Shown in pieces: positions 23,661-56,403 of a stretch of DNA of 64,000 bases (the stretch's first letter is position 1; the number at the start of each line of letters is the position of its first letter). The translations under genes and the position numbers were made by a program. The DNA lies in NCBI RefSeq assembly GCF_040782645.1, contig NZ_CP160403.1:3410001-3474000 (forward strand). The letters run 5' to 3'. Under the pieces are notes generated by a model, which ran no database searches, was not told the DNA's origin, and was given only the letters and a program-made list of their open reading frames with translations. The stretch comes from Streptomyces sp. HUAS ZL42 (GTDB lineage: Bacteria; Actinomycetota; Actinomycetes; Streptomycetales; Streptomycetaceae).

Positions 23661-23732
23661 GCCCCCGTAGCTCAGGGGATAGAGCAACGGCCTCCGGAGC
23701 CGTGTGCGCAGGTTCGAATCCTGCCGGGGGCA
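23661..23732 (+). tRNA. tRNA-Arg, anticodon CCG
   Basis: The cloverleaf folds fully: acceptor GCCCCCG/CGGGGGC, D stem GCTC/GAGC, anticodon stem ACGGC/GCCGT with loop CTCCGGA (anticodon CCG), T stem GCAGG/CCTGC with loop TTCGAAT, and discriminator A; no encoded CCA. It reads the common arginine codon CGG. Its 3' part (from 23692) is the integration site of the adjoining elements and is duplicated at 41421 and 51669. Confidence 0.98.
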
Positions 23733-23738
23733 CTCGCC
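23692..23738 (+). repeat. attL core: 47-bp tRNA-Arg 3' repeat, copy 1
   Basis: Starting CTCCGGAGCCGTGTGCGCAG and ending GGGGGCACTCGCC, it spans the anticodon loop to just past the tRNA 3' end. It is identical to 41421-41467 and one base longer than 51669-51714. Integration at this site keeps the tRNA gene intact. Confidence 0.95.
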
Positions 23739-38031: not shown

Positions 38032-38146
38032 CTTGCGCACGCCGCGGCTCCCCGGTGCGCCGCCCCCGCATGGCCGGCCTGCCGAGCCGTGAGTGAAATT
38101 GCTCGAAGTGCTGACGTGCAGCGCGCAGTTGTGGAAACATCCCGCT

Positions 38147-39136
38147 ATGTCTTGGCAGATGGCTTTGGAATACCTTCGCACGCTCGTCTGGCCAGCCGTT
38201 GTGCTGACTCTTGGCTTTACCTTCAGGAAGCAACTGGCATCACTGTTCGGTCGCGTCGAGTCTGTTGAGACTCCCCTTGGAACAGTAGCCTTTGAAAAGC
38301 AGGCTGATGCAGTTGCTCAGGAAGCTGCCGAAATTGAGAGCGAGATGGCTGGCGAGCTGGCGGCAGCACAGACGAATACCTCAGAAATAGATGATGTGGA
38401 AACTCGCGAAATATCGACCGGAGAACCGCAGCAGATCACTCGACCGCAAAATTTGAGTAGCGATTTCTCCGATCTTTTTGAACTTGCCGAGACGGAAACA
38501 ACTGCCGCCGTCATGGCCGCATGGCGCGAGGTAGAAAGGGCGGTGAAGACCGCCGGAATAAAGCACGGCCTTACACCAATAACTTCGCAGACCTTGTCCG
38601 GCATGGGATTGCTTTCCGATGAACTCGCCAGGTCCGTTGAGGACCTGCGCCATCTGCGGAATCGAGTCGTCCATGAAGGCGATATCCTCCTAACGAAGAG
38701 TGGCGCACGATCGTATATCACTGCCGCGCAACGCATCGTAGAAGCCTTGGAGCTATCACAGGATCCGAGGTTCCAAGCGCTCCAATACGAACGTTCCGTA
38801 GTTCACGCCTTGGGGCGCGCGGGACTTCCTGCCGAACCGGGAAACAGAGACGATGAATTCGACGCTTACGGGCAGACTCCAGCCAGTACCACAATTGCAG
38901 TAGAAGTCAGATTTCGACGTCGAGGTGAGCTAAGCCTTCACGATATCGAGAAGGTGATTTCCAAGCTCCCCACCCTCGCCGCAAATGTCCTCGTTGTAAC
39001 CAATGCACCACTGGCCCAAGAGGTGCATGAATTTAACTCTACCTACAACGCCCGGCCGCGCTTCGAAGTAGTGCAATGGCAGGGCGATAGGGATACGCCC
39101 TTGCTGGCTCGGGCCATTGGGCGCCTGAGCGGTTGA
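38147..39136 (+). CDS. Membrane-anchored protein with HEPN-like and nuclease-like domains; candidate defence effector
   Basis: The 329-residue protein comes from ATG 38147 (a longer frame from 38093 is less likely). The N-terminal 26 residues form a membrane segment (LRTLVWPAVVLTLGFTF). Residues 40-95 are a charged linker. Residues 110-205 are helical with the HEPN-type motif LRNRVVH (R171, N172, H176). The C-terminal part resembles a restriction-endonuclease fold: EFDAYG (D239), then IAVEVRFRRR (E253, R255 where Lys is usual) and the strand VLVVTNAPLA. GC is clearly lower than in the flanking genes, so it is recently acquired cargo. No exact family was recognised; the domain calls are by eye. 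Confidence 0.65.
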   Translation: MSWQMALEYLRTLVWPAVVLTLGFTFRKQLASLFGRVESVETPLGTVAFEKQADAVAQEAAEIESEMAGELAAAQTNTSEIDDVETREISTGEPQQITRPQNLSSDFSDLFELAETETTAAVMAAWREVERAVKTAGIKHGLTPITSQTLSGMGLLSDELARSVEDLRHLRNRVVHEGDILLTKSGARSYITAAQRIVEALELSQDPRFQALQYERSVVHALGRAGLPAEPGNRDDEFDAYGQTPASTTIAVEVRFRRRGELSLHDIEKVISKLPTLAANVLVVTNAPLAQEVHEFNSTYNARPRFEVVQWQGDRDTPLLARAIGRLSG

Positions 39137-39149
39137 TCGGCGCGCTGTG

Positions 39150-39236
39150 CACAGAGGCTGTAACACCCCGGGTGTTACAGCCCGTCGGCGGAGCCGACCC
39201 CTCATTGGGCGCAGGAGCCGGAGGCGACTTCCGAAT
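39150..39236. repeat. R1: palindrome-rich direct repeat, also a bidirectional terminator
   Basis: GGCTGTAACACC and GGTGTTACAGCC form a perfect 12-bp stem with loop CCG, followed by GTCGGC/GCCGAC around GGA, then a conserved tail GGGCGCAGGAGCCGGAGGCG. It lies between two convergent cargo genes, so it can end both. A copy with roughly 90% identity (R2) is at 41239-41326. Confidence 0.75.
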
Positions 39237-39238
39237 GC

Positions 39239-40471
39239 TCATTCAAACAACTCAGATTGCCCCGGCGAGATAGAGCGACTTCTCGAATTGCGCGCTCGCC
39301 GCTGAATCACTTCCTCAATGGGACCCAGCGTCTCAACAACCGCCGCATTATAGAGCCAGTGCAACGTACCTTCGCGCTCCAGGTTACCGGTAACCCGGAT
39401 CGCAAGGTCTTCTTCATGAGCCCTAACAGCCTCATGATAGTCCTCATCAGAGGCCAGTCGGACTCGCACCTTCTTGGGTTGGCCACTTTCGAGAGAGTCG
39501 ATTCCGAATACGCCTGGACTCCCCGCCTCTTTTTTTGCAAGGAGGTGTACCCGACCAACAATGGTCTTACGTTCGGACCGACTGTCTGACGCAAGTTCAT
39601 TGGCCGCCTTTTCCAGGACGGGTGCGTCACTACCTCGCAGATCGAAAGTGACGGATGCGGACTCCCCTGGAATCGGACGACTAGGGTCCCATTCAACCGT
39701 GATGTCCGCACCGTCAGACTGAGAAGCCATGCCCAATAGGGCAATAGCCATTTCGTATGAGACTCCCTGCTGCACGCCGGCAGCGAACCCCGTCATCGAA
39801 TGAGTGGTCTTGTAGTGGTCGAGAGCTTCAACTGTTGCACCTACCGCACGCACGACAGCCAGATTGATTTCGCGAGACTGAGCGACGTTCGAGCCTGTCA
39901 GATCAGGACTCGCAGACTGAACGCCTCCCCGAAGAGGAACAGCGGCCGCCGTCGGCGCGTAGGCAGTGACGATGTAACTGCCAGGGGCAGTCTGCCCCAT
40001 CAAGATGCCCTCAAGATAACGATTGGCAAATTGACCGAACTTGTTACTGAAATGTCGGACGGGATCAACAAATGCCTTAGCTCCAGCCAAAAGAGCTTTT
40101 CGTGCCGACAGGATCAGCTGCTCCCCTTCACGCCATGCAATCATCCCACTAGGCGCAGAGGACTCTTTCCTGAACCTAAATTCATCTGCCGTCTGCACGA
40201 TGAGTCGCGGCGACAGGACACGAGTCCACAAGTCGCGGTCGTCGGCCAACTGCCTCAGTGCGGCGTTCATCATGAAGGAAAAGTCTGGAGCTTCCGTATC
40301 GAGCGGAACCAGGAGAGTGGCCGGACCGGAAGGACTGGCGCCCGGAGGAGCCAAGCGATTATACGCCCCATCCCTCGCCCCAACCATCTGCCACCCTGCT
40401 TCTTCCAGGACAGATGCAAGCCTACGGGGATCCACGTTGCCGGGGATCACCGAGGAATCAAGGCTGTTCAT
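39239..40471 (-). CDS. Unknown 410-residue cargo protein paired with the DUF4365-like gene
   Basis: No family was recognised. The N-terminal part (VLEEAGWQMVGARDGAYNRL) looks like a small alpha/beta domain repeated in restriction-associated proteins; the middle is helical (KAFVDPVRHFSNKFGQFANRY); the C-terminal half mixes strands and charged helices (TFDLRGSDAPVLEKAANELA). No membrane segment or catalytic motif stands out. It overlaps the upstream DUF4365-like gene by 14 bases, so the two make one operon. Lower GC and AT-rich codons mark it as acquired. Confidence 0.72.
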   Translation of the reverse strand: MNSLDSSVIPGNVDPRRLASVLEEAGWQMVGARDGAYNRLAPPGASPSGPATLLVPLDTEAPDFSFMMNAALRQLADDRDLWTRVLSPRLIVQTADEFRFRKESSAPSGMIAWREGEQLILSARKALLAGAKAFVDPVRHFSNKFGQFANRYLEGILMGQTAPGSYIVTAYAPTAAAVPLRGGVQSASPDLTGSNVAQSREINLAVVRAVGATVEALDHYKTTHSMTGFAAGVQQGVSYEMAIALLGMASQSDGADITVEWDPSRPIPGESASVTFDLRGSDAPVLEKAANELASDSRSERKTIVGRVHLLAKKEAGSPGVFGIDSLESGQPKKVRVRLASDEDYHEAVRAHEEDLAIRVTGNLEREGTLHWLYNAAVVETLGPIEEVIQRRARNSRSRSISPGQSELFE

Positions 40472-41063
40472 TCAACGATTCACCCCTATCAAGCTTGTCG
40501 AGGATAAGAGTCAAAGAAGAGGCATCAAATATATTCGCGGTTGGAACCCTTATGGTGGGACTCGCGACGCCCTGCTTGGCTATTTGCCCCTCCAGTGAAG
40601 CCCAATAACAACAGTAATTGAGCTCCAATCGATCATGACTGGCGCGGGTCCAATCCATCTGTCGATGCGACGTGACCATAACGACCAATATGGCCTTGGG
40701 CGTACTCCTCACCAGCGAGAGGTGTTCGAAGTACTCACGCTTCTTGAACTGATAGCTGAATTCAGTTTTAGACGGGTCCGGGCGGATGGTAGTGGTGTTC
40801 TTTAGCTGCACGTACACACTGGCCTCCTGCTTGCCAGTGATCACCGGGGGGCGGGCGAGCAGTGCATCCATACCATAGATGTCACGTCTGACAGCAGTCA
40901 TAGCGCAGCCGGCCGTCGCAGCGACGCTGGCAACGTAGCCTTCCTGAAGTTGCTCCATGCATGCAGTGAAGGTGTTCTTGTTCACCGCTTCTATGCGACT
41001 GACCGGGGCGCGCTTGACCCCCGTGTCTCCGGCAGATTGCACCAACCGACTCCCCCCTCCCAC
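40458..41063 (-). CDS. DUF4365-like PD-(D/E)xK-fold nuclease candidate
   Basis: About 201 residues from GTG 41063, or 175 from GTG 40985. The core EQLQEGYVASVAATAGCAM, RRDIYGMDALL and YVQLKNTTTI follows the DUF4365 pattern: Asp61/Asp66 in the D-x-x-x-x-D element and Gln86-Leu-Lys88 as the terminal catalytic Q-x-K of the restriction-endonuclease fold. DUF4365 genes recur in defence islands. Operon with the 410-residue gene suggests a two-component system: nuclease plus partner. Low GC. Confidence 0.7.
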   Translation of the reverse strand: MGGGSRLVQSAGDTGVKRAPVSRIEAVNKNTFTACMEQLQEGYVASVAATAGCAMTAVRRDIYGMDALLARPPVITGKQEASVYVQLKNTTTIRPDPSKTEFSYQFKKREYFEHLSLVRSTPKAILVVMVTSHRQMDWTRASHDRLELNYCCYWASLEGQIAKQGVASPTIRVPTANIFDASSLTLILDKLDRGESLNEQP

Positions 41064-41420: not shown

Positions 41421-41467
41421 CTCCGGAGCCGTGTGCGCAGGTTCGAATCCTGCCGGGGGCACTCGCC
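41421..41467 (+). repeat. att core, copy 2 (junction of elements 1 and 2)
   Basis: 47 bases identical to 23692-23738. The sequence to its right (TGGGAACAGCAGAAATCAAG) matches that after copy 3 rather than copy 1, which records the order of recombination events. Confidence 0.95.
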
Positions 41468-41513
41468 TGGGAACAGCAGAAATCAAGCGCTGACCAGGGC
41501 GGATGCCGACACC

Positions 41514-42903: not shown

Positions 42904-44223
42904 TTGGACAACGATACGACGTTGCTGCTTGACCTCGACGGCCTGGCCGTCGTCAGGGTCGAACGGCTGGCAGAAGGCGCCCGGCGGGTGCACCTGGTCA
43001 CGGCCGAGGAGGGCGCGCGGGCCTGCCCCGCATGTGGAGTGCTCTCCTCGCGGGTCAAGGGATCGGCGATATCGCGGCCGCGGGACCTGCCCCACGGCGA
43101 GCGGGGCCTGGAACTGGTGTGGCGCAAGCGGCGCTGGTACTGCCGCGAACCGCAGTGCCCGAGGCGCTCTTTCACCGAGCAGGTCCGCCAGGTCCCGGCC
43201 GGAGCACGGATCACCCAGCGGTTACGGAACGCGGCGGGTCGGCGGGTATGCGACGCCGGGTCCACTGTCATTCAGGCGGCCCGTGACCTGCATCTGTCCT
43301 GGCCCACCGTGATGAACGCCTTCCGTACCGCCGGGCAGGCGGTGACGGCGGCCGCGCTGGAACCAATCGAGGTGCTGGGCATCGACGAGACCCGGCGAGG
43401 GCGCACCCAATGGCAGCAGAACCCGGACTCCGGGCGCTGGGAGCCGGTCGCGAACCAGTGGCACACCGGCTTCGTCGACGCCTTCGGAGTCCAGGGCCTG
43501 CTCGGACAGGTAGAGGGCCGCGCCCCCAGCGACGTGCTGGCCTGGCTGTCTACCACCCCACTGGAGTGGCGCAAACAGATCCGCTTCGTCGCCATCGACA
43601 TGTCCACCGGCTACCGTGCCGCGATCCGTACCGCACTGCCGCACGCCACGGTGGTCGTCGACCACTTCCATGTGGTCCAGCTCGCCAACAAGATGCTGAA
43701 CACGGTCCGCCGCCGCACCACCGCCAGCCTGCGCGGCCGACGCGGACGGGCCGCAGATCCCGAGTGGAGGGCCAGGCGCCGGCTCCTGCGCAACCGCGAG
43801 GACCTGACCGACCAGCAGTTCACCCACATGTGGAACGGGCTCATCGACGCAGGCGCGATCGGCATGACGCTCCTGACCGCCTGGATCGCGAAGGAGCGGC
43901 TGCGGGACCTGCTCGCCACCTCCCGCACCGACGCCGACAGACACCGCATCGGACACCTGCGCTGGAAGTTCCTGACCTGGTGCGCGGACTCCGACATCCC
44001 CGAGGTCCGCCAGCTCGCCGTCACGGTCGACCGCTGGTGGCCCGAGATAGAAACGTTCATCGCCACCGGCCACAGCAACGCCAAGAGCGAGGGCATCAAC
44101 CGCGTGATCAAGCTCGTCGCCAGAGCTGCCCACGGCTTCCGCAACCCGGCCAACCAACGCCTACGCACACGCTGCGTCACCACCCGCCGAGCCCGCGGAC
44201 ACCTCCGCACCGCTCAACTTTGA
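42904..44223 (+). CDS. ISL3-family transposase
   Basis: The 439-residue protein starts at TTG 42904. The N-terminal zinc finger is CPACGVLSSRVKG with a second Cys pair (RRWYCREPQCPRRSF), followed by an HTH, then the DDE catalytic domain: GIDETRRGRTQW (first Asp), VVVDHFHVVQLANKM (second Asp) and NAKSEGINRVIKLVAR (Glu). It appears intact. Its stop lies in the right terminal repeat, six bases from the target duplication. Confidence 0.92.
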   Translation: MDNDTTLLLDLDGLAVVRVERLAEGARRVHLVTAEEGARACPACGVLSSRVKGSAISRPRDLPHGERGLELVWRKRRWYCREPQCPRRSFTEQVRQVPAGARITQRLRNAAGRRVCDAGSTVIQAARDLHLSWPTVMNAFRTAGQAVTAAALEPIEVLGIDETRRGRTQWQQNPDSGRWEPVANQWHTGFVDAFGVQGLLGQVEGRAPSDVLAWLSTTPLEWRKQIRFVAIDMSTGYRAAIRTALPHATVVVDHFHVVQLANKMLNTVRRRTTASLRGRRGRAADPEWRARRRLLRNREDLTDQQFTHMWNGLIDAGAIGMTLLTAWIAKERLRDLLATSRTDADRHRIGHLRWKFLTWCADSDIPEVRQLAVTVDRWWPEIETFIATGHSNAKSEGINRVIKLVARAAHGFRNPANQRLRTRCVTTRRARGHLRTAQL

Positions 44224-44945: not shown

Positions 44946-46322
44946 TCACACGAGGTCGTCTGGCCAATCGAGTTCCGCCTCGATCTTCTTGTTCATGGTC
45001 TCCTCCTGGCCGTAGATGCACCCTTCATAGACGCGGTGGATCACTTCGGGCGAGTTGCCGACGCGCCGGGCGACCTCTGCCACGGGCACGCCAGCGTTCA
45101 GCCAAGTCGTGATGCAGGTGTGCCGGAGGTCGTACGGCCGTCCCCCGAGGATGGAAGCCTGAAGGTCCGGCGGGAGGGCGTACTCCCGAGCGTCCCGCCA
45201 CACGCGCCAATAGGTGCTGCTGCCCACGAGACCGCCCCGCTCGTTCGTGAAGAGCCGCCCATCCTCGGCCGTGCCGAACTCCTCGAGGTGGGCGCGGAGC
45301 ATGGCCACGAGTGGTGGCGGGATCGGGACCGGCCGGTCCTCCTTGGCCTCTCTCGACTTCAGGCCGCGCCTGTCGTGGCCCTCTCCACTGTCTGTCCACT
45401 GCTTCCCCGACACGGGGTGTGTGTCGTGAAGCGTCAGAACGCCCCACCCCTTCTCCGGGAGGAAGCAATCAGCCTTCCTGAGCCCCACAGCCTCACTCGG
45501 TCGGAGCCCCGCGAAGTACATGACCGCGTAGAAGCCAACCAGGCGCCAACCCTTCTTACGGTCCCATGTCCCAACGTATGAGACCGAAGCGACGAGTTGA
45601 GCAGCCTGCGTCTTGTTCACAAGGACGCGGGGGTCCACGCGGTCCGATGAAGCACTCTTCACTTTCTTGATAGCGGCGAGTGGATTCTCCGTTAGAAGCT
45701 TGCACTCGATGGCGTATTCAACCGCGGTATTGAGCGCGCGCCTACGACGACGGGATGTCTCCCCCGCCGCGGGGGTGCCGTCCAGTTTGAAGGAGAGCCG
45801 ATACTGAACATCGCGAAGAATCTTCGGGTCTTCCAGCGAGGAGACGAGAAGTGAATTCTTGGACATCCACCGGTAGGCGTCTTCAAGTTCCTCCGGCGGG
45901 TCAAGTTCGGCGTTCTTGGGAATGACCGCCCACCGGAAGGCGAGACGCAGCTCCTCCGGCGACGGCATTTTCGTTTCCTGCTCTACCAGAGCCAACGTCA
46001 CCGCGGCGAGCCCGTCGGCGATGCCCTCACGGGTCTTGGCCGCGGCGGTTGGCCAGCGCATCGCCATGTACTCGCGACAGAACGCGAACCAAGGCAGTTC
46101 CTCCCGGGCTTGCTCCGCGCTGGCCTCGGCCCGTACCTCGGATTCAGGCAGCCCGTCCGCGATGCGGAATGCCTCGCCACGGCGCATTGCCTGCCACAGG
46201 TCAGATCTACGGCTCTCTGCAAGCGCCACCGTGGCGAAGGTGGCACTGCTGACCTTTCCTCCGACTTTCCAGCGGAGTTGGTAGGGACGGGTCTTGCTCT
46301 GCGCCTTGGAAACCTTCCCTGC
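44946..46322 (-). pseudogene. int: Element 2 integrase, 5'-truncated
   Basis: Similar throughout to the element 1 integrase (GRPYDLRHTCITTWLNAGVP and NSPEVIHRVYEGCIYGQEE keep the catalytic Arg/His/Tyr). Upstream of 46322 the frame hits a TGA and similarity stops; the first 35-40 residues of the arm-binding domain are missing, with no start codon or ribosome site in frame. The DNA beyond the break matches the leader of the Pra-like gene, so a deletion fused the two. GTG at 46229 could give a 427-residue product lacking arm binding, presumably inactive. Confidence 0.88.
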
Positions 46323-46501
46323 GGAGAGAGGTTCGCCCCGTCAAGCCCTTCGGCTGTTTGAGGTCTGCGGGCCTCTCGCGCTCGATGTACCTACAGACTG
46401 GCGTCGGCAGGGCCGACGATCGACTTCGCGGATGTACGGCTCAAGTCGTCCTTAGCTACCGTGAAGTCGAACCAAGTCGTCCCAGGAAGGCGGAGGTTGG
46501 C
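46323..46501 (+). promoter_or_regulatory. Pra-Nudix upstream region of element 2
   Basis: Closely matches 35436-35615 of element 1, including CAAGTCGTCC at 46442 and 46473, the same 31-base spacing, and GGAGG before the start. The region left of about 46325, corresponding to the divergent transfer promoter in element 1, is gone. Confidence 0.65.
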
Positions 46502-47737
46502 ATGGCGAACGAGCGACTGCGCGGCGCGATAGTGGACTTGGGCCTGACGCTCGACGAGGTCGCCGAACGACTCGGGGTCGAGGCCAAGACGGTAGAGCGA
46601 TGGATCAACGAACCGGAGCGCAAGCCATATCGCCGCTTCCAGTTCGCAACGGCATCACTGTTGAGATGCGAGGTGTCGTACCTGTGGCCCGACGAGCGCA
46701 CGTCAGCTGAGGTCGCGGCCGCCAGTAACGCGGAGTTGGTCAGGCTCTATCCACACCGGTCCGTCGTGATGCAAACGCTCTGGACGAACCTCTACTCCAA
46801 GGCAACCCGTCAGTTTGACCTGTTGGTGTACTCCGGGTTCTGGCTCACGGAAGACGCGTCGTTCCACCGCATCGTGAAAGAGAAGTCAGCCGATGGAGTG
46901 CCCATCCGCTTCATCCTGGGAGAGCCCACGTCGGCGGCCGTGGCGGTGCGCGGCGAGGACGAAGGGATCGGCGCGGCAATGGCGGGCAAGATCCGGAACG
47001 CCCTCATCAACTACGGCCCGCTCTTCGGCCTCCCCGGAGTGGAGTTCCGGTTGCACGGTGCAACCCTCTACAACTCCATCTACCGGGCCGACGACGAGAT
47101 GCTGGCGAACGGGCACCTTTACGGGGTCGGCGCCTACATGGCACCCGTGCTGCACCTGCGACGCGTGCCCGGCGGTGAACTCTTCGACGCCTACGCTGAG
47201 AGCATTGAGAAGGTCTGGGAGTCGGCGTCCGATCTCTTCGCCTACCGAGTGGGAAGGCACCGCCTGATGAGCCGGATCGACTACTTCCGTGACCCGACCG
47301 CCCCCAAGGCCAACTCGGTGGTGCCCTCGGTCACCGCGGTCGTCCTGGACGACGCAGGGCGGCTGCTCATCCACAAGACCGATAACGATCTGTGGGCACT
47401 GCCCGGCGGCGGCCACGATATCGGCGAACGCATCGGCGACACCGTCATCCGTGAGGTCTCAGAAGAGACAGGCATAGACGTTGAGGTAGACGGCATCGTG
47501 GGGCTCTGCACGGACCCTGAACATGTGCTGGCGTATGACGACGGAGAGGTCCGGCAACAGTTCTCCATCTGCTTCCGAGCGCACCCCGTGGGCGGCACCC
47601 TGCGCACGAGCAGCGAGTCAAAACAGGTCCGCTGGGTCTGCCCAGCGGACCTGGACGGACTAGACATTCACCCGTCGATGATGCTGCGCATCCGACACGG
47701 CCTCGACGAATCGCGACAAGAGCCCTACATCGGCTGA
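46502..47737 (+). CDS. Fused Pra-like regulator and Nudix hydrolase
   Basis: This 411-residue single frame combines residues 1-256 equivalent to the Pra-like protein (HTH LTLDEVAERLGVEAKTVERW) and a C-terminal Nudix domain (GGGHDIGERIGDTVIREVSE then ETGIDV). The junction reads LFAYRVGRHRLMSRIDYFRD. In element 1 two extra bases just before this point put a stop into the frame and an overlapping ATG restarts it. The fusion could let Nudix ligand binding or hydrolysis govern the HTH directly, or the split form may derive from it. Start ATG 46502 with GGAGG upstream. Confidence 0.85.
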   Translation: MANERLRGAIVDLGLTLDEVAERLGVEAKTVERWINEPERKPYRRFQFATASLLRCEVSYLWPDERTSAEVAAASNAELVRLYPHRSVVMQTLWTNLYSKATRQFDLLVYSGFWLTEDASFHRIVKEKSADGVPIRFILGEPTSAAVAVRGEDEGIGAAMAGKIRNALINYGPLFGLPGVEFRLHGATLYNSIYRADDEMLANGHLYGVGAYMAPVLHLRRVPGGELFDAYAESIEKVWESASDLFAYRVGRHRLMSRIDYFRDPTAPKANSVVPSVTAVVLDDAGRLLIHKTDNDLWALPGGGHDIGERIGDTVIREVSEETGIDVEVDGIVGLCTDPEHVLAYDDGEVRQQFSICFRAHPVGGTLRTSSESKQVRWVCPADLDGLDIHPSMMLRIRHGLDESRQEPYIG

Positions 47738-48296
47738 CCGTCGGCAGTTACCTTCGCCAACCTGTGTTCAACCCGCTTCGATGCTGCGTGGATCTCCGGG
47801 GCTGCGCGCTGAATGAACCGCCCAACGATCGTGTCAGGGCCGTACCGCTGCACGATCTCGTCCAGCCTCTCAACTGGCGTCGTTTGCGTCCCGTCGGGCG
47901 TCGTCGTCATGTCGCAGTAGAGCAAGGCGTCGACCAGGTCCGGCCGCTCCAGCTCAAACTCACCCTCCAACTCTTGCCTGAGCCCGCGCTCCTCAGCTTC
48001 CAGCAGAGCGCAGGAGTGGTGAGCCACGAGACGAACAACCCGTTCGTCCGCCCCTTCCTGGTTCCTAAGGAACCGCGCACCATCCAAGGGGTGAAAGCCC
48101 GTGGTCGCGATGGCCGGCGAGTACCCGATGTCATGCAGAACCGCGGCAGCCTCGAGCAACTCGGCATCATTGCCGACCATCGGCCCCAGGGAGCGAGCGC
48201 GCGCTTAGCAACCCCAAGCGAGTGAGCCCACCGGCGCGGGAGCGGATCAGACAGCAGCGATTCAGAGAGCGAGTACGCCCACTCAGTCAGTCCCAT
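47725..48296 (-). pseudogene. HD-domain gene of element 2, frameshifted
   Basis: The N-terminal 33 residues (MGLTEWAYSLSESLLSDPLP, VAKRA) are in one frame and the rest (ELLEAAAVLHDIGYSPAIAT onward) in another. Compared with element 1, two extra bases sit in a GCGCGCGC run near 48200-48210. The internal frame of 151 residues still holds the HD pair but lacks the first histidine. Confidence 0.85.
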
Positions 48297-48307: not shown

Positions 48308-48754
48308 CTACGACTGGAGGGGAGGTGTCGGGAGAGCACGTACGGTTCGCCCCTTGCCGTGGATGGTGGAGAGCAACCCGTTTCCTTCCATCTGGCCGAG
48401 CACACGACGCACGGCCGTGCGGGAGACTCCAAACCGTTCACAGAGCCTCGCTTCAGAGGGGTATGAGTCACCCACAGAGAGCGAGTCCTCTGCGATCAGA
48501 TCGGTCAATCGCTGCACGAGGGAGCGTCGGTCACCGCCCCGGACAACGCGCCAACCGATACCGGAGGCTGACTCGACAACGCCGTCCACCTCCAACACCT
48601 TTAGAGCGCGGCGCACGGTGTTGCGGGACACGCCGTGTGAACTCATCAACGCGGCCTCTGAAGGCAAGGCGTCACCCGCGTCACCCGATTCGATCTGTTG
48701 TCGTAGCGACTCAGAGACCTGCAAGTAGGTACCTCGCGGACTGGCCTGCGGCAC
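48308..48754 (-). CDS. Tandem winged-helix GntR-type repressor of element 2
   Basis: This 148-residue paralogue of 37425-37871 has both helix-turn-helix units intact (LPSEAALMSSHGVSRNTVRR and YPSEARLCERFGVSRTAVRR). The linker and most of the second domain are nearly identical to element 1, while the first 30 residues differ more. It may cross-regulate element 1, since the candidate operators are shared. Confidence 0.83.
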   Translation of the reverse strand: MPQASPRGTYLQVSESLRQQIESGDAGDALPSEAALMSSHGVSRNTVRRALKVLEVDGVVESASGIGWRVVRGGDRRSLVQRLTDLIAEDSLSVGDSYPSEARLCERFGVSRTAVRRVLGQMEGNGLLSTIHGKGRTVRALPTPPLQS

Positions 48755-48941: not shown

Positions 48942-50090
48942 GTGAGGCTACGCAAGTCTGACCTCGAAGTCGAAGTGCTGTACAACCGCATCAGACGCGG
49001 TGATCTCGATCTTCAACCCGACTATCAACGCGGCGAAGTCTGGGATACTGCTCGCCGACAACGTCTGGTCGACACGATCTTGCGCGGATGGTACGTACCT
49101 GCCATTCATGTAGTACGCGATGACGCGGGCTTCGAATCTATTTTGGATGGACAACAGCGGCTCCGCACGATCCAGGCTTTCATGAATAACGTGTTCCGCT
49201 TTTCCGCCAAAATTGAACCACCGAGCGAGGAGCTGGAACCTTATGATGGTTACTTTTTCGACCAGCTTCCAGAAACCCTGAAGAAGAGGTTTCAGCGCTT
49301 CGAGATCAGCGTGGTAACGCTGACGGACTATGAACCCGCCGAGCCCTCAGAACTATTCTTTCGCCTCAATCAGCAGTACGCCTTGACTCCTTCAGAAAAG
49401 CGCAACGCTCTATTTGGCGCAGCTCGAGACCAGGTGAAGGACGTCGTTTCCACCCTTGTCGAAGCAGGTCTCCTGAAACGCGAGGTTGTAGGCTTCTCAA
49501 ACGGCAGGCTGGCGTACGACGATGTAATGGCCAGGGTGTGTGTTGCCCTTGAAGAGGGAACCCTCCGACGCCAGTTGAGCAACACATACATTGAACAGTT
49601 CTACAGGTCCAATGATTTCAGCCCATCCGTAATACGGCGCGCTTGCGACGCCGGCATCGCCCTGGGGGCCACCCTCGGCGGCCGAAAGATCATGAGGTTT
49701 AACAAAGCAACACTATTCACCTGGCTAGTCTTCACAGATCACGTAATCCAAACTACAGGGGAAAGCATCCCAGAGAAGTTCATCAGGAACTTCGAGGGTC
49801 TAAGGACAGGCACCGTCACTCCGGAACTACCGATAACAGAACTCGGCCCCACTATCGAGCCAGATCTAATCGGCGTAGTAAAAGCCTACAACGACAGGTC
49901 TTCCTATCGAGTGCTTGACGTCTCTTCGGTTCTGTTGCGCGACTTCGCGCTACACATACTGCATGAGGCATTCAGGTCGGCCGGTCGGGGGCGCTTTGCC
50001 GATATCTCCGCGAGATTGAAGTCATCGGATGATGCAGAGCATGAAATGCTCGCGGAGATCGAGAGGATCAACTGGGGGGCCGATCTGTGA
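48942..50090 (+). CDS. DUF262 (ParB/GmrS-like) protein, first gene of a candidate defence pair
   Basis: The 382-residue protein starts at GTG 48942 with AAAGGAG upstream. DUF262 hallmarks: LQPDYQRGEVWD (24-35) and the nucleotide/DNA-site motif ILDGQQRLRTIQAF (67-80). The remaining 280 residues are helical (PSELFFRLNQQYALTPSEKR). There is no fused DUF1524 HNH domain, unlike GmrSD enzymes, so the nuclease partner must be separate. The stop overlaps the next gene's GTG (GTGA). Low GC relative to the element backbone. Confidence 0.88.
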   Translation: MRLRKSDLEVEVLYNRIRRGDLDLQPDYQRGEVWDTARRQRLVDTILRGWYVPAIHVVRDDAGFESILDGQQRLRTIQAFMNNVFRFSAKIEPPSEELEPYDGYFFDQLPETLKKRFQRFEISVVTLTDYEPAEPSELFFRLNQQYALTPSEKRNALFGAARDQVKDVVSTLVEAGLLKREVVGFSNGRLAYDDVMARVCVALEEGTLRRQLSNTYIEQFYRSNDFSPSVIRRACDAGIALGATLGGRKIMRFNKATLFTWLVFTDHVIQTTGESIPEKFIRNFEGLRTGTVTPELPITELGPTIEPDLIGVVKAYNDRSSYRVLDVSSVLLRDFALHILHEAFRSAGRGRFADISARLKSSDDAEHEMLAEIERINWGADL

Positions 50091-51433
50091 GACTTTTGCC
50101 ATTGGGGCAGCGGTGGGAGAGCCTCGCTAAAACTAACGCCTCTGGAGAGTTTCCCCGGCAAGTAGCCTTGGACGGCTTCGGCACACAAGACCAGGTGGAG
50201 TTGCCGAAACCTCTCACTGTCATCTTTGGACTCAACGGATCCGGAAAGACACGGCTGCTCAGCAGCTTGTCCAAGTCGCTTTCGGATGCACCTGTCGTGG
50301 CCATGTACGAGCTGGTTAATTACCTACTGCACGATTTCGGCAAGCGTGATGACATCCCTGACTTGCTGGACGAGCTAGATCCCCTCGCCCCAGAAAAAGT
50401 GAAACTCGATGAAGTCCAGGATCTGGTTCGCCGAGACTACGAAGAGGTTAGATGGTACGTAGCACCCATCGTAGGTAGCCCTTTTTCCGCGCTCGTCGGT
50501 GAAGAGGTAGTTCCTGTTTTCGTGGTGCGCTACGGGGGAAGAGAGTACGACTTTCGGAGCATGGGTCTTGGTGAGTTGAGCGTTCACCTCCTCATGTGGA
50601 TCCTCTCGTACAGCAAGGGTAGTGACAGCCAGGCCTTCCTTCTGGATGAACCAGAAGCATTCTTGCCAGCTCCTTCCAAGGCTGCTTTCCTGGCTCATCT
50701 ATTGGAAACCTGCATCAATGGCGGGAAGCCCCTCGTTGTCGCATCGCACTCGCTTGAAGTAATTCAGCCAGCCCTTGACGCAGACGCGGCAATTATGCTG
50801 GCCTATCAGTCTTCAGACATTCAATTCATCGGCCCTTCGGACATGCTGAAGGATCGAGTGGCAGGATTGTATGGCCAGACGCGGGAAGTGGAATGGGTCG
50901 TACTTCTCGAAGATGAAGCGGCATACATTCTAATTCAGGAGATCACCCGTACCGCAGACCCGAAGCTATGGCAGTCATGCCGGTTTCTTTGGTGCGCGGG
51001 CTACGGGGATCTCGAGGCCATCTGGGCCCACCTCCCTAGACCCGATCAGAAAATAGATGGAGTCCCATCCTTCGCTTTCGTTGCCGATGGCGACAAGGCA
51101 GAGGACGTAAAGAAAGCTGTCGCCAAAAACGAAAAAAAGACCCGCCAGAAGAACCGTTGGCCACTCTTCTGCCTTCCGGGAGATCCGGACGCCCTGATGA
51201 AGGCGTCGGCCAAAGAGCAGGTCTCATTCCTCGCAGACCACCTTTCCCAGACCCCGGAGGCGATTGTCGGATTCCTGGAGTCAATCGAGGGGCGGGAAGC
51301 CCACAACTGGCTCGAGGATTTCGTCAGCTTCGCCCGACGCCCCCGTCAAGAGGTAATGAGGATGCTATCCATGGCCTACGTGCGAAACACTGATCGGGCC
51401 GAGCTTCAGGACTTTCTGTCGTCTCTCAAGTAA
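50087..51433 (+). CDS. OLD-like ABC ATPase with TOPRIM-type domain, second gene of the pair
   Basis: The 448-residue protein has Walker A FGLNGSGKT (47-55), a signature-like SMGLGELS (158-165), Walker B AFLLDEPEAF (183-192) and the switch histidine in ASHSLEVIQ (H221). A TOPRIM-like segment follows: VVLLEDEAAY (E275) and FVADGDKAED (D334, D336). This is the overlapping-ATPase-plus-nuclease layout of OLD and Gabija-type proteins. Translational coupling to DUF262 implies a complex or a fixed ratio. Low GC; last gene before the right att site. Confidence 0.85.
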   Translation: MRLLPLGQRWESLAKTNASGEFPRQVALDGFGTQDQVELPKPLTVIFGLNGSGKTRLLSSLSKSLSDAPVVAMYELVNYLLHDFGKRDDIPDLLDELDPLAPEKVKLDEVQDLVRRDYEEVRWYVAPIVGSPFSALVGEEVVPVFVVRYGGREYDFRSMGLGELSVHLLMWILSYSKGSDSQAFLLDEPEAFLPAPSKAAFLAHLLETCINGGKPLVVASHSLEVIQPALDADAAIMLAYQSSDIQFIGPSDMLKDRVAGLYGQTREVEWVVLLEDEAAYILIQEITRTADPKLWQSCRFLWCAGYGDLEAIWAHLPRPDQKIDGVPSFAFVADGDKAEDVKKAVAKNEKKTRQKNRWPLFCLPGDPDALMKASAKEQVSFLADHLSQTPEAIVGFLESIEGREAHNWLEDFVSFARRPRQEVMRMLSMAYVRNTDRAELQDFLSSLK

Positions 51434-51668: not shown

Positions 51669-51714
51669 CTCCGGAGCCGTGTGCGCAGGTTCGAATCCTG
51701 CCGGGGCACTCGCC
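51669..51714 (+). repeat. att core, copy 3 (one G shorter)
   Basis: Same as copies 1 and 2 except CCGGGGC in place of CCGGGGGC. It is the right boundary of element 2 and at the same time the left boundary of the element 3 remnant. Confidence 0.92.
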
Positions 51715-51762
51715 TGGGAACAGCAGAAATCAAGCGCTGACCAGGGCGGATGCCGACATGAG

Positions 51763-51795: not shown

Positions 51796-51850
51796 TTCTC
51801 ACTGTTGCGCACTGATCACGTGTGAGGGGAGTGTGGGCCACGCACGGGGC

Positions 51851-52003
51851 TCACACGCTGTCCGGCCCCTCCCCCCACCCCATGGTCTTCTCGATCTTCT
51901 TGTTGTTCTCCACCTCGCTGTCGTCGGCAACCCCCGCATAGCGGCGGTGGATCACCTCCGGGGAGTTGCCCGCGCGCCGGCCACCTCAGCCACGGGGAGG
52001 CCA
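51851..52003 (-). pseudogene. Element 3 remnant: integrase C-terminus with frameshift
   Basis: The translation NSPEVIHRRYAGVADDSEVE then NNKKIEKTMGWGEGPDSV-stop aligns with the C-termini of both integrases in the array and keeps the catalytic Tyr. One base is missing in the preceding GLPVAEVA/RRAGNS segment. Beyond 52003 similarity ends at a transposase fragment. Its place and strand just right of an att core are those of int in elements 1 and 2, so a third element once sat here. Confidence 0.85.
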
Positions 52004-52009
52004 GAGCGG

Positions 52010-52290
52010 AGCCGTACGGCTTGCGAGCGAGGGGCGAACACTGCAGCGGGTGGGCCAGATGCGGCTCGAAGCCGTAGTCCTGGAACAGCTCGATCAGCCA
52101 GCCCCAGCCATACGTGGCCTCGAACACCACCGGCGTGCCCACCGGCAGGTCACCGATCACTCCCAGCACCGTCTCGCGCCCGTTGCGGACGTTCCGGTTC
52201 GCCGCCGTCCGGCCGCTCTCGTCCATCACGGCGATCTGCGACCGGCGGCGATGCACATCGATCCCGACGTAAACCTGAATCGCGGGCCTC
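52010..52290 (-). pseudogene. IS110-family transposase fragment
   Basis: The stretch VYVGIDVHRRRSQIAVMDES, then VVFEATYGWGWLIELFQDYG and FEPHLAHPLQCSPLA, matches the N-terminal RuvC-like DEDD domain of IS110/IS1111 transposases. It stops before the second half and has no clear start codon (GGAGG followed by ATT or GTT). It abuts the integrase remnant and probably marks the deletion that removed most of element 3. Confidence 0.75.
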
Positions 52291-52428
52291 CTGACCCGGA
52301 CTCGGCTCCCCCACAGCAGGGGGCTCCCGACGCACCACAAGGGGAAGCCCCAGCCCTCATAGGTCAGGCCAACGGCACCTTTCTGCTATCGGGGCGTCAG
52401 ATCGCCCAATTCCGCTGAATACCAAGGG

Positions 52429-55400
52429 TCAAATCAAGCTGAGGGTCTGCAACCTGTTGACGAGCCGGTAGCATCGCTGCTCGGGCCCCGACGTTTGTTC
52501 GGTCACTGCTTTGGTCAGCTCCCGCATGGCTGTGGGATGGGCTCCACGTCCGGTTCTGTCGTACATCTGCAGCAAGCGGCGCAGGAAGGCGCGCACCGCG
52601 GTGAGGTCGCCCTGAAGGGCTTTCGCGTGCGCCCTGGCGCAGAGGTCGTTCGCGTTTTCTGCCGACCGGGATTGCATGTGTCTTTCGACGCGGTCGGGCA
52701 TGCGGACCCGCAGAAGTTCCGAAACGACCACCCCGTACGCCTCTTTCTGTGATTCTTCTGGATACTTCTGCAGGACGCGAAGAATCCTGCTTCGTTGTTT
52801 GGCGAGGTCACCCGGGAGCAGGCGCAGGGCGAGGATGAGGCGTTTCAGGGTCCAGGGGTTCAGCGTGAACGCCGCGGCTGATGCGGCTGGGGCTGGGGTG
52901 CCTGCCCAGTCGGCCAAAGCGTCCAGGCAGTTGCCCAGTACTGCGGGCGACTCCCATGCCTCCCGCACCGCCCAGTCGGACAGGAGCCGGGACACCTCTG
53001 AGGAGTCGGCCGGGTCGCTGGACTGTATGACCGCGGTGGCCAGTTGCACCACCAGCTCGGCCTGACTGGCTTCGGGTGTGGCGGGGAAGCCCTTCAGGTA
53101 GTTCTCCGCGTCCGAGGGGCGCAGCGTGCGCGCGTGGATGGCTGTTTCCAGCGCCGCGAAACGCAGCTGCAGGTAGTCCTTGACGGGCACCTGGGGATCT
53201 TTCATCAGCCGGCCCACCGTATCCAGCGACATCCGGGACAGGCGGTGCAGTTCGTCCGGATGCCATTGGCTGGCGAGTTTCAACAGCCACTGCCACACGT
53301 GGGCGGCCTGGTTGGGCGGGAGCTCGCAGGCCAGGGACAAAAGGGCCTCCGTGCTTCGCGCTCCCAGCGCGTCGTCGGCTTCTGTGCGACGAATCACCTC
53401 CAGCTCTGCTTCAAATCCGTGGCAGGTGGTGTCATCCAGGGTCGATGGCTGCATGCAGGCTTTCAGTATGCGCAGGGACAGATCGTGCCGTTTCTGGGTC
53501 AGACAGCGGCGCGTCAGGTCCATGAAGTGGCCTGCGCACTTGTAGCGGTCCTGCAAGGACGCCGTGTCGATGTCCGTCACGGCGCTGTACAGGTGACGCC
53601 ACAGCCACGTGCGGTCGTCGGGCCGCCCGTGCTTGGTGACCAGAGGGGGAAACAACTGCGCCGTGTTCCCGGTGTGCAGCAGGTGCGGCACGTCCACGAC
53701 GCCGCCCCGCAGAACCGGCATCAGTATGTCGGTGATTTCTTTCTTCCTGGGGAATTTTTCCACCATTTCGAAGAACCCCGCCCAGGGGCTTACATCCCAT
53801 TCGGAGGCGCCCTGCAGCCGGCGAACCAAGTGGAGCATTGTCTCGTCGCCGCCCAGGGTGAGGAGCATGTGCAGTACTTCGGCCGGGCTGCGAGGTTGGG
53901 GAGCGAGGTTCTGCGCAAGTTCGGCCGAGAGTCCGGCCTGCCAGTCATCCGCCAGGGATCGGACGTCCGGGAGCGTTTCACCGTCCGAGCGGTGGATCGC
54001 GAGGATGAGAGGGTACCAGGCGTAGATCTGGGTCGACACCGGATCCTGAGCGCTTTTCGCGGCGATGGCGAGGATCAGGTTCCGATGATTGCTCACCAGC
54101 CAGGATCGGTCCTCTTTCGAGGTCCTGGTGATGAGTTCCCGCGCGAATTTGCGGTGCAACCGGTTTGCAGGGTCAAGTCCCCTGAGCGCCTTGTGCAGGA
54201 ATTCATGCCTCCATTTTTCGAAGGTGGGATTTCCGTTTCGGTTTTTGATTCTTTTCAGTGCCCGGTCCAGGGCGGTGCGCTGCCCCAGCCAGACGAGGCG
54301 CTGGCCGGCCCCGGCGATGTAGCCGTGTGCCTGTTCGAGGTCGTCCGATGCAAGGCCGAATGCTTCGCTGAGGACACCGTCAGGTACGGGGAGCCGCTGG
54401 GCTCCGCAGTACATGAGCAGCAGGAGGCCGAGAGCCTTGTCAGTCCCGGAGTGGTACTTCTGGAACTGTCCGTGCAGTTCTTCCGCGTACCGCTGGAATG
54501 CCTGCTCCCGGTCGGAGCTGAGCATGCGGACGACTTCGCCGATGAGTGGGGGGTTGTCGCTCCTGAGACGGAAGTTGATGTCCGCTCGTTCGTTGTGGGT
54601 CAAGCGGTGCCGCCGCGAGCGGGACGGGTGCAACTGCGCGGCGAGTGCCTGTACTTCGTCGATCTGTACCCGTCCTACCTGCACCGTTTGCTGCAACGGC
54701 TGCAGCCAGGCGGGGGTGTCGCACTCGGTCAGCAAGTACAGCCCGGGTTGGTTGCTGTCCTGGTCGTCCAGCGTGGGGCTGAGGATGACCCGCACATCGT
54801 CGGGGTCGCGGAGGGCGTCCAGCACGATGATGAAGGGCTGTTGCTGTGCGGCGCGGAAGGCCTTCAATGCCGTGATGTCGGCTCCGCTCTCCGGGTCGAG
54901 GACGAAGACGGGGGCCTGCCTGAGCCGGTGGAGTTCGTCCACGCTGCGCAGCAGCGCCCAGGTGCGGCCCGAGCCCCGAGCACCTTCGACCTTCAAGATG
55001 GCGGAACGCGGGGAGGGTTGGTCGAGCCATTCGCTCATGGATCGGTAGGCCTGGCGCTCGACATCCCGTTCGATCGCCGGCCTGGAGAAGCACTCGTGTG
55101 TGACAAGAGCCAGCGGGGTGCCGGGGGCGGGCACCTGCTCGCGCCACTGGGCCCAGCCCACGGGCCCGCCGGCGGCCGAGTCGTCTTCTCGCCGCTTCGG
55201 CGCGGGTGCAGGGCGGCGCGGGGTGTGCACATCGGCCCTGGCCTGGAAGGCTGCGCAGGCGCGGGCAGCCAGGCGCAGGAACCACAGCTGTTCGGCACGT
55301 TCCGTACGGCGAGGAAGGAACATCAGGGCGCAGGCCTGCAGGGCCAGGAGGTACTGGGGGTGCCATTCGGGCTGGGCGTAGCGGCGGACCCGGCGCCAGG

Positions 55401-56403
55401 GGTCAGGAGCGGCGCGCAGGCGCCGAATGGTGGACAGCAGGCCTTTGGGCAGGAGGACTTCGTCCGCCGCGGTGGTCTCCTCATCGTCGTTGAGCAGGAG
55501 TTCTTCCAGCACGTTGCGTGCCGGCTCGTCCAGTCGGGGAAGGTAGTCGCAGACCAGGTAGAGCATCAGCTGGACCGGGTCTCGCAGCAGCAGCCCTACC
55601 TCCTGAAAGCGGGACAGGTCGATGAGGCGGAAGGAGTCGGGGGCAAGCTGCGGCTGCGTGGCCACCATGATGTTGCCGGGGTGGAGGTCGTAGTGGGCGC
55701 GGCCCAGGGCCACCGTGGGCGGTTTCAGACGGGCCAGCGGGGAAGGATCCGCAAACGGGGTGGGGTTGGGCAGCGCATGAGACCATCCCGGCGGTGTGAA
55801 AGATGTGCTGCGCAGGTCGGTGCCCAGGAGCCGCGCGGCGGCGCCGGCCAGGTGGCCGGCGGGGTCGGCCCGATGGCCCAGAGCCTTCGCCAGGAAGTCC
55901 TGCGCCGCCATGTCGTGCTCGGCGCGCGGGTCGGGATTCCACTCCGTGAAGATGGATTCGATGACGGCGGCGGCTACATCGGTTCTCCCGTCGCCGGGTG
56001 GGATCACGGTCAACGGGTTCAGCGGATTGCGTCCGCGTTCATCGAGGGCGCACTCGAGGAACATCAGCCAGCTGTCGCCGACCCTGAGCGGCGGATAGAC
56101 CTGGCGAATGAGCCGGCGCCCGGGAAAGACGAAGGCGGGCCCACCCCGGTGGAAGTCCGGACCGGACTGCCAGGCCGTCTCGAGATCATGAGGTTCGGTG
56201 ACGGCCCCGTCATCGTCGGCACACAGCTTGAGCAGAAGCTTCTGCTGTGGATGCTCTGCATCCCCTTCATGGAAGACGAAGCCGAGGCGTGCTCCGCTGC
56301 CCCCGTCGGGTAACGCCTGCGCGAGGGTGATTTTGCGCCGAGTGTTTTGCCACTGCTCCAGCGCAGCGTCGGCCTCGTGGCCAAAGTGTGTCAACCCGCT
56401 CAT
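52429..56403 (-). CDS. Giant kinase-fold/STAND-type NTPase protein, candidate conflict-system sensor
   Basis: The 1324-residue protein has an N-terminal phosphotransferase-like domain, about 1-380, with HYDLHPGNIMVAT (237-249) and RLIDLSRFQEVG (259-270), the catalytic-loop and DFG-like positions of aminoglycoside-type kinases. A P-loop NTPase follows with Walker A EGARGSGRTWALL (473-485) and Walker B PFIIVLDALRD (523-533), then some 700 residues of helical repeats. The order effector-like domain, NTPase, superhelical sensor is that of STAND proteins in bacterial conflict systems. ATG 56403 lacks a strong ribosome site. The function is inferred from architecture only. Confidence 0.7.
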   Translation of the reverse strand: MSGLTHFGHEADAALEQWQNTRRKITLAQALPDGGSGARLGFVFHEGDAEHPQQKLLLKLCADDDGAVTEPHDLETAWQSGPDFHRGGPAFVFPGRRLIRQVYPPLRVGDSWLMFLECALDERGRNPLNPLTVIPPGDGRTDVAAAVIESIFTEWNPDPRAEHDMAAQDFLAKALGHRADPAGHLAGAAARLLGTDLRSTSFTPPGWSHALPNPTPFADPSPLARLKPPTVALGRAHYDLHPGNIMVATQPQLAPDSFRLIDLSRFQEVGLLLRDPVQLMLYLVCDYLPRLDEPARNVLEELLLNDDEETTAADEVLLPKGLLSTIRRLRAAPDPWRRVRRYAQPEWHPQYLLALQACALMFLPRRTERAEQLWFLRLAARACAAFQARADVHTPRRPAPAPKRREDDSAAGGPVGWAQWREQVPAPGTPLALVTHECFSRPAIERDVERQAYRSMSEWLDQPSPRSAILKVEGARGSGRTWALLRSVDELHRLRQAPVFVLDPESGADITALKAFRAAQQQPFIIVLDALRDPDDVRVILSPTLDDQDSNQPGLYLLTECDTPAWLQPLQQTVQVGRVQIDEVQALAAQLHPSRSRRHRLTHNERADINFRLRSDNPPLIGEVVRMLSSDREQAFQRYAEELHGQFQKYHSGTDKALGLLLLMYCGAQRLPVPDGVLSEAFGLASDDLEQAHGYIAGAGQRLVWLGQRTALDRALKRIKNRNGNPTFEKWRHEFLHKALRGLDPANRLHRKFARELITRTSKEDRSWLVSNHRNLILAIAAKSAQDPVSTQIYAWYPLILAIHRSDGETLPDVRSLADDWQAGLSAELAQNLAPQPRSPAEVLHMLLTLGGDETMLHLVRRLQGASEWDVSPWAGFFEMVEKFPRKKEITDILMPVLRGGVVDVPHLLHTGNTAQLFPPLVTKHGRPDDRTWLWRHLYSAVTDIDTASLQDRYKCAGHFMDLTRRCLTQKRHDLSLRILKACMQPSTLDDTTCHGFEAELEVIRRTEADDALGARSTEALLSLACELPPNQAAHVWQWLLKLASQWHPDELHRLSRMSLDTVGRLMKDPQVPVKDYLQLRFAALETAIHARTLRPSDAENYLKGFPATPEASQAELVVQLATAVIQSSDPADSSEVSRLLSDWAVREAWESPAVLGNCLDALADWAGTPAPAASAAAFTLNPWTLKRLILALRLLPGDLAKQRSRILRVLQKYPEESQKEAYGVVVSELLRVRMPDRVERHMQSRSAENANDLCARAHAKALQGDLTAVRAFLRRLLQMYDRTGRGAHPTAMRELTKAVTEQTSGPEQRCYRLVNRLQTLSLI

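What the first reader, a model, noticed from the sequence alone, without database searches (positions are those of the whole stretch)
48942..51433. Coupled DUF262 plus OLD-like ATPase-TOPRIM pair: candidate undescribed defence system
A stand-alone DUF262 protein (DGQQR motif, no HNH domain) overlaps by GTGA a protein with ABC-type ATPase motifs and TOPRIM-like acidic residues. Known relatives combine these parts differently: GmrSD fuses DUF262 to HNH, Gabija pairs an OLD protein with a UvrD helicase, PARIS pairs an ATPase with a TOPRIM protein. I know of no named system with this pairing. The location is a cargo slot of a mobile element and the GC is low.
Basis: partly seen in the sequence, partly recalled or inferred. 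Interest (0 to 1): 0.85.

Follow-up and report, generated by a model that had tools for sequence, protein, structure and literature searches.

The report
DUF262–OLD nuclease pair, likely phage defence
Two overlapping Streptomyces genes, a probable infection sensor and a probable DNA- or RNA-cutting ATPase, form a conserved two-gene unit in a slot where some related mobile elements carry bacterial immune systems, so they are probably an unnamed anti-phage defence system.

Summary
A 382-aa DUF262 protein (48942-50090) overlaps by GTGA a 448-aa protein (50087-51433) that joins an ABC-type ATPase to a TOPRIM-like tail. But it is not Menshen by most tests run: no NsnC, no DUF3696, and a DUF262 tree that rejects joining it to NsnA (AU p 0.007). 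One printed statement that a Menshen component carries an OLD-type TOPRIM leaves some doubt. Context supports defence: the pair is cargo of the second of two tandem tRNA-Arg islands; in related islands the same slot holds Hachiman, Lamassu or PADLOC candidates in 5 of 8 cargoes scanned. Most likely mechanism (inferred): the DUF262 protein senses infection and licenses the OLD-type nuclease. New variant of a known kind. No activity is shown, and the TOPRIM call rests on motif and predicted fold.

The parts
48942..50090 (+). Gene A: stand-alone DUF262 (GmrS-type, ParB/sulfiredoxin fold) protein, 382 aa, GTG start, no HNH domain found
50087..51433 (+). Gene B: OLD-like ABC ATPase (about residues 20-260) plus TOPRIM-like domain (about 268-365) and helical tail, 448 aa, overlaps A by GTGA
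   Evidence: AF2 model pLDDT 88 whose best solved match is the OLD nuclease 6p74, Foldseek E 2.1e-7, TMq 0.31, rmsd 18.0 over 562 columns; an SMC head is rank 2 and GajA rank 3
50087..50090 (+). GTGA translational overlap
51669..51758 (.). right att-like repeat, 3' end of tRNA-Arg(ccg) plus following bases; right end of island 2
41421..41511 (.). middle att-like repeat, 98.9% identical to the right one over 91 columns; junction of islands 1 and 2
23661..23733 (+). intact tRNA-Arg(ccg), presumed integration site
   Evidence: repeat
44946..46229 (-). integrase of island 2 (Phage_integrase, E 2.4e-6, just over the Pfam cut-off)
46358..47737 (+). HTH plus NUDIX gene of the conserved element module
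   Evidence: module duplicated in island 1, 86% over 2351 columns
47725..48180 (-). HD-domain gene of the conserved element module
48308..48754 (-). GntR-type double winged-helix regulator that borders the cargo slot
   Evidence: closest homologues in other Streptomyces 84-53% identical in the regions read

Best explanation
The two genes are a two-component anti-phage module made of a DUF262 sensor-regulator and an OLD-type ATPase-nuclease, carried as interchangeable cargo of a tRNA-Arg integrative element. Shown here: the two genes, their motifs, predicted folds, co-inheritance, wide but rare distribution, and a cargo slot that in some related islands holds defence systems. Inferred: protein A, which looks like BrxU without its HNH nuclease, detects an infection cue (a DNA modification, a nucleotide-pool change or a phage protein) through its nucleotide-binding ParB/Srx-type fold. 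It then releases or recruits B, whose ABC ATPase controls the TOPRIM-like nuclease, which cuts phage DNA or a host nucleic acid such as tRNA and stops the infection.
For: Invariant in all 20 B rows, among 18 positions: G162 E163, D187 E188 P189, H221 S222, E275, D334, D336, H406; in all 20 A rows, among 29: D69 G70, R73, N143. E..DxD found in 20 of 20 B, Walker A in 18 of 20, the two misses being short 376-aa gene models. Folds: B's best solved match is the OLD nuclease 6p74; A's is BrxU. Slot: regions around GntR homologues were read in 18 of the 20 best-scoring other genomes; 11 of 18 carry NUDIX and HD genes by blastp. Cargo was scanned in 8 of these 11, and 5 of 8 hit PADLOC: Hachiman HamA/HamB (L174, E 5e-107/2e-229), Lamassu LmuA/LmuB (L177, E 4e-24/4e-93), PDC-M36A (L173, E 2e-138), DUF3644/HEC-08 (L181, E 8e-24/2e-21), and, weakest, PDC-S39 and PDC-S41 (L182, E 3e-11 and 1e-17); none in L175, L178, L179. 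Island 1 of the window has PDC-M02A in the same place (E 2.9e-90). A type II methylase gene lies within about 5 kb of the pair in L029 and L030, and an HsdR-like ORF (E 2.4e-4) directly upstream in L101.
Against: No activity, trigger or target is known. The TOPRIM assignment has no significant sequence-profile support, and TM-scores of the best fold matches are low (0.31 and 0.28 by query). Sequence search of A against solved structures found no relative. The predicted structures are single chains, so no complex was tested. Slot counts are small, have no matched control slot, and three of the five hits are PADLOC candidate families, not proven systems. The pair is rare: B at E <= 1e-3 in 3 of 150 genomes of the genus, two of them weak, and no match to B in 50,697 phage or 72,556 plasmid records at E <= 1e-5.
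Confidence: 0.65

Rival explanations
1. It is a divergent Menshen system: A is NsnA, B is NsnB, and NsnC has been lost or replaced by the TOPRIM-like tail.
For: PADLOC NsnA hit on A E 3.5e-32; A-NsnA profile-profile E 1.7e-27 over 188 columns, B-NsnB E 1.2e-7 over 82 columns; same gene order and overlap in canonical loci. [quoted passage not shown]
Against: NsnA match covers only the DUF262 domain (residues 2-170). No NsnC hit in B's last 202 residues and none by hhalign. In the one canonical locus read in full, NsnB ends in DUF3696 and neither NsnB nor NsnC hits a TOPRIM family; B has no DUF3696 hit. In the DUF262 tree both groups are single clades (100/99 and 100/98), A joining 6 other DUF262 rows first (95/90) and NsnA 9 others (88/92); AU test p 0.007 against joining them after six long rows were dropped. 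B matches OLD-type proteins and NsnB about equally by profile (E 6e-8 and 1e-7).
Confidence: 0.2
2. It is a modification-dependent (type IV-like) restriction pair: A recognises modified phage DNA as GmrSD, BrxU and SspE do, and B cuts that DNA directly rather than killing the cell.
For: A's predicted fold is nearest BrxU and SspE; DGQQR motif; OLD and GajA nucleases cut DNA (PMC10568477, passages). This is a sub-case of the best explanation.
Against: No modification-reading domain was identified; the TOPRIM nuclease AriB of PARIS cuts tRNA instead (PMC12409363, search listing; PMC12839542, passages).
Confidence: 0.3
3. It is a toxin-antitoxin or element-maintenance unit of the island, with B the toxin and A its restraint, and phage defence a by-product or absent.
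For: Overlapping genes and location on an integrative element; PARIS's AriB, once activated, cleaves host tRNA to abort infection (PMC12839542, passage), so a nuclease of this kind can be toxic to its host.
Against: Slot neighbours in several related islands are defence systems or candidates; the pair also occurs off this element type, in places beside restriction genes.
Confidence: 0.12
4. It has no defence role: a housekeeping DNA-repair or regulatory pair moved by chance.
For: ABC ATPases of Rad50 and SMC type match B's ATPase fold as well as or better than OLD-type proteins in the second aligner.
Against: Rare distribution, low GC, cargo slot.
Confidence: 0.05

Closest known systems
Menshen (NsnA-NsnB-NsnC)
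   Same: First gene DUF262, second gene an ABC ATPase, same order and overlap
   Different: No NsnC, no DUF3696, separate DUF262 clade; a TOPRIM-like tail, though a review places an OLD-type TOPRIM in one Menshen component
OLD family nucleases, classes 1-4 (single OLD, Gabija, retron, PARIS)
   Same: ABC ATPase plus C-terminal E..DxD TOPRIM-like domain; best solved match 6p74
   Different: Partner is a DUF262 protein, which none of the four classes described in PMC10568477 (passages) has; 448 aa against 528 (6p74) and 575-675 (GajA chains)
GmrSD / BrxU / SspE
   Same: DUF262 with DGQQR; predicted fold nearest BrxU
   Different: No DUF1524 HNH domain found; the presumed nuclease is a separate OLD-type protein
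PARIS (AriA-AriB)
   Same: ABC ATPase with TOPRIM-type effector; AriA is B's best PADLOC hit, E 6.3e-11
   Different: ATPase and TOPRIM-like part in one protein, plus DUF262 partner
pSAM2-like actinomycete integrative elements (AICEs)
   Same: Integrase, tRNA-Arg site, NUDIX, HD and GntR genes; a paper reports tandem AICEs in a tRNA-Arg gene of S. avermitilis and mdp-nud-xre clusters (PMC3218068, passages)
   Different: No replication or transfer gene recognised in island 2 among the ORFs scanned, so it may be a remnant or a mobilisable relative

Membership tests
Menshen | NsnA-type DUF262 protein over its full length | tested here: not met
   Hit covers A 2-170 against model 45-213 of 385; separate clade, AU p 0.007
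Menshen | NsnB ATPase | tested here: inconclusive
   E 1.2e-7, profile-profile E 1.2e-7, about equal to OLD-type proteins; no DUF3696
Menshen | NsnC | tested here: not met
   No PADLOC NsnC hit in B's last 202 residues or in the three upstream neighbours scanned; no hhalign match; own genome negative for PDLC03879 at E <= 1e-3 (two other NsnC models not searched in the genome)
OLD nuclease family | ABC ATPase motifs | tested here: met
   AAA_21 over cut-off, Walker A in 18 of 20, fold
OLD nuclease family | C-terminal TOPRIM domain | tested here: inconclusive
   E..DxD in 20 of 20, strand-helix order of the model fits and Foldseek's best solved hit is an OLD nuclease; no Pfam or significant profile match; VIA covers only residues 15-264
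Gabija | GajB UvrD-like helicase next to the OLD gene | tested here: not met
   Neighbours scanned at 44.2-52.3 kb are integrase, NUDIX, HD, GntR, an IS110 fragment and one 241-aa ORF without hits
PARIS | AriA ATPase with AriB TOPRIM effector | tested here: inconclusive
   AriA hit on B; no AriB gene seen next to B; AriAB fusions exist (PMC10568477, passage) and B has a weak AriAB hit, E 1.9e-3
GmrSD/BrxU type IV | DUF262 plus DUF1524 HNH | tested here: not met
   Only GmrSD_N over cut-off in A, no DUF1524 hit at E <= 1
AICE | integrase, tRNA att repeats, replication and Tra genes | tested here: inconclusive
   Integrase and att repeats met; Rep and Tra not found among ORFs scanned, not searched for specifically
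Any defence system | protection against phage | not testable with these tools
   needs plaque assays

The most novel reading that the evidence does not exclude
A further class of OLD nuclease: an OLD-type ATPase-nuclease licensed by a stand-alone DUF262 sensor, arisen apart from Menshen, found from actinobacteria to a Pseudomonas, and moved around Streptomyces in a defence cargo slot of tRNA-Arg islands. It would show that DUF262 sensors have been wired to ABC ATPases at least twice.
Probability: 0.47. Interest if true: 0.68.

Novelty: new variant of a known kind. Interest (0 to 1): 0.55.

Why it matters
DUF262 proteins recur in defence loci but are best understood where an HNH nuclease is fused to them. 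A minimal two-gene unit in which the sensor and an OLD-type nuclease are separate proteins would let one ask directly what DUF262 senses and how it controls a partner. The slot comparison also points to tRNA-Arg islands of Streptomyces as a place to look for further defence systems, since the same position holds Hachiman, Lamassu and uncharacterised cargo in the islands read.

Tried and rejected
Single-sequence scan of genome contigs with B found nothing; the alignment scan gave 11 loci, of which the 4 with long matches were read and 7 with shorter matches were not. The weak match in G100 was not read. HEC-04 and AriA profiles ring in 176 of 198 and 198 of 198 genomes and are too general to place B; a tree of the ATPase domains was therefore not attempted. 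DUF4435 gave one locus. Prevalence in the genus was tested on samples of 150 (B) and 392 (A) genomes only. Viral and phage collections: one short fragment, otherwise none. The BFVD search gave mostly ATPases, with two giant-virus 'ATP-dependent endonucleases' at ranks 2 and 3. For the slot, G138 and G122, though among the 20 best other genomes, were not fetched. L185 (ThsB, E 2e-49) and L187 (ShosA, E 9e-66) were scanned, as was L180 (one protein, no hit), but left out of the count because a NUDIX and an HD gene were not both recognised there; L176 (one protein scanned with Pfam only), L183, L186 and L190 were left out for the same reason. Module loci L184, L188 and L189 had no cargo scanned. 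Six long rows were dropped before the second tree; the Menshen question came before any tree, but the AU test was run after I had seen the first one. Literature: searches showed no paper whose title, abstract start or read passages name this pair; lists were capped in some (30 of 58, 40 of 99, 25 of 53) and the library lacks most subscription papers. Not seen: the original Menshen paper (Millman et al. 2022, as cited in PMC10952713) and the 2020 ABC-ATPase survey (recalled by DOI, look-up failed), which by a passage in PMC12839542 (its reference 52; that the two are the same is my recollection) describes many TOPRIM-linked OLD neighbourhoods and could already contain the pair. On checking I added the review's TOPRIM statement about Menshen, which speaks against my reading, and moved the Menshen rival from 0.17 to 0.20, the novel case from 0.50 to 0.47 and the best explanation from 0.66 to 0.65.

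Full report
What is there. The window lies in a single-contig 9.87-Mb genome, at 3410001-3474000; the closest named protein relatives are from Streptomyces. Gene A (48942-50090) encodes 382 aa with the DUF262 domain and DGQQR and no HNH hit. Gene B (50087-51433) starts inside A's stop region (GTGA) and encodes 448 aa with an ABC-type ATPase and, after it, an E..DxD set of acidic residues. A database gene model of B starts later and has 412 aa; several relatives have the longer start.

It is a real module. B has 28 homologue clusters at E <= 1e-3; A has 490, of which 120 were listed. In 15 of the 28, the window's own included, the longest-contig length equals that of a listed DUF262 cluster; of the 13 others, 11 have longest contigs of at most 4,135 bases and two of 28,034 and 136,832. 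Equal contig length is a proxy for lying on one contig. In DNA I read the pair, same strand and overlapping or within 3 bases, in the window and in Paractinoplanes (L029), Marmoricola (L030), Mycobacterium (L031), Pseudomonas parafulva (L032) and another genome of the window's genus (L101). Over 20 pairs, A and B distances correlate at r 0.94 with 0 of 9999 permutations as high; common descent alone would give much of this, so it shows co-inheritance, not contact.

What B is. Conserved in all 20: GE at 162-163, DEP at 187-189, HS at 221-222, E275, D334, D336 and H406, among 18 positions. The predicted model (pLDDT 88) alternates strands and helices around these acids as TOPRIM domains do (general knowledge). 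Foldseek's best solved match is the class 1 OLD nuclease 6p74, E 2.1e-7 but TMq only 0.31, with GajA at rank 3, among SMC and Rad50 heads. The second aligner covers only the ATPase and ranks Rad50, SMC and UvrA first. Pfam, PADLOC and profile-profile tests of the tail alone are negative or not significant, so 'TOPRIM-like' is the right strength of claim.

What A is. The model (pLDDT 82) matches BrxU first (E 3.4e-4, TMq 0.28), then SspE and ParB/sulfiredoxin folds in the N-terminal 150 residues. BrxU's rmsd of 15.8 over 288 residues means that domains are matched but not their arrangement. A therefore looks like the sensor half of BrxU with the nuclease missing.

Is it Menshen? [quoted passage not shown] I read one canonical locus in another genome (L040): NsnA, NsnB with AAA_21 and DUF3696, and NsnC, without a TOPRIM hit in NsnB or NsnC. 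That differs from the review's statement, which I could not trace to its source. A hits NsnA only over the DUF262 domain; B hits NsnB weakly; NsnC is absent by PADLOC and hhalign. In a tree of 75 DUF262 domains, 20 A-family and 20 NsnA rows each form one clade (100/99, 100/98), but A joins 6 other DUF262 rows first (95/90) and NsnA 9 others (88/92). After six long rows were left out, an AU test rejects A plus NsnA as one clade, p 0.007. Long branches, limited sampling, and running that test after seeing the first tree are caveats. B is about as near to OLD-type proteins as to NsnB. So it resembles Menshen in make-up but is not filed as Menshen.

Where it sits. The tRNA-Arg(ccg) at 23661-23733 has its 3' end repeated within 41421-41511 and 51669-51758, marking two tandem islands, each with an integrase and an 86%-identical NUDIX-HD-GntR module. 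Tandem AICEs in tRNA-Arg and HD/NUDIX clusters are known for actinomycete elements (PMC3218068, passages). Between the GntR gene and the right repeat lies low-GC cargo: in island 1 three ORFs, one matching PDC-M02A, E 2.9e-90, in island 2 the pair.

Testing the slot. GntR homologues at E <= 1e-3 occur in 140 of 140 genomes, as expected for a common fold, so I read regions around the best ones: 18 of the 20 best-scoring other genomes. Eleven of 18 carry NUDIX and HD genes. Cargo was scanned in 8 of 11: Hachiman in L174, Lamassu in L177, PADLOC candidate families in L173 (strong), L181 and L182 (weaker), nothing in L175, L178 and L179. In L173 and L174 the cargo is followed by a perfect 43-bp tRNA-Arg remnant; of the other nine module loci, L175 and L178 have only short matches to it and seven none. 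There is no matched control slot, so this is supportive, not statistical, evidence. In L029 and L030 a methylase gene (Eco57I type by Pfam in L029, 51% identical in L030) and an uncharacterised gene (37% identical) lie near the pair.

How it may work. DUF262 proteins bind and hydrolyse nucleotides and regulate nucleases in BrxU and SspE (PMC10952713, passages); in PARIS the ABC ATPase AriA activates the TOPRIM nuclease AriB (PMC12839542, passage). The simplest reading is that A senses and B executes. Sensing cue, target and outcome are inferred. I put about 0.65 on the defence pair with this division of labour, and less on any particular target.

Verdict. Observation confirmed, interpretation partly right: an unnamed, distinct DUF262-OLD pair is likely, but the two-part theme is already known from Menshen, and two papers that could already list the pair could not be read. 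Interest 0.55.

Noticed in passing
23661-51758: Two tandem integrative islands in tRNA-Arg(ccg) with three att-like repeats and a duplicated 2.35-kb NUDIX-HD-GntR module (86% identical).
   Followed up: yes
38093-41063: Cargo of island 1: a 347-aa protein with a sub-threshold HEPN hit, a 410-aa protein without Pfam hits and a DUF4365 protein matching the PADLOC candidate PDC-M02A (E 2.9e-90); GC 56.4%.
   Followed up: partly
L173-L190: The GntR-bordered slot of related islands holds varied cargo, including Hachiman, Lamassu and uncharacterised genes (for example a 498-aa protein in L178 and a TPR protein in L175).
   Followed up: partly
52429-56403: 1324-aa protein on the minus strand with sub-threshold nSTAND NTPase 5 and TCAD9 matches, just outside the right att repeat; it may be another conflict-system protein.
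   Followed up: no
51816-52340: IS110 transposase-like fragment (sub-threshold) next to the right att repeat, probably a decayed insertion.
   Followed up: no
42904-44223: ISL3-family transposase inside island 2.
   Followed up: no
window 51302-51304 (B residue H406, in GREAHNW): H406 is invariant in all 20 B proteins including those at 20% identity, outside the E..DxD set; its role is unknown.
   Followed up: no
L029 10110-13919, L030 4058-6680: An Eco57I-type methylase and an uncharacterised partner gene accompany the pair in two genera.
   Followed up: partly
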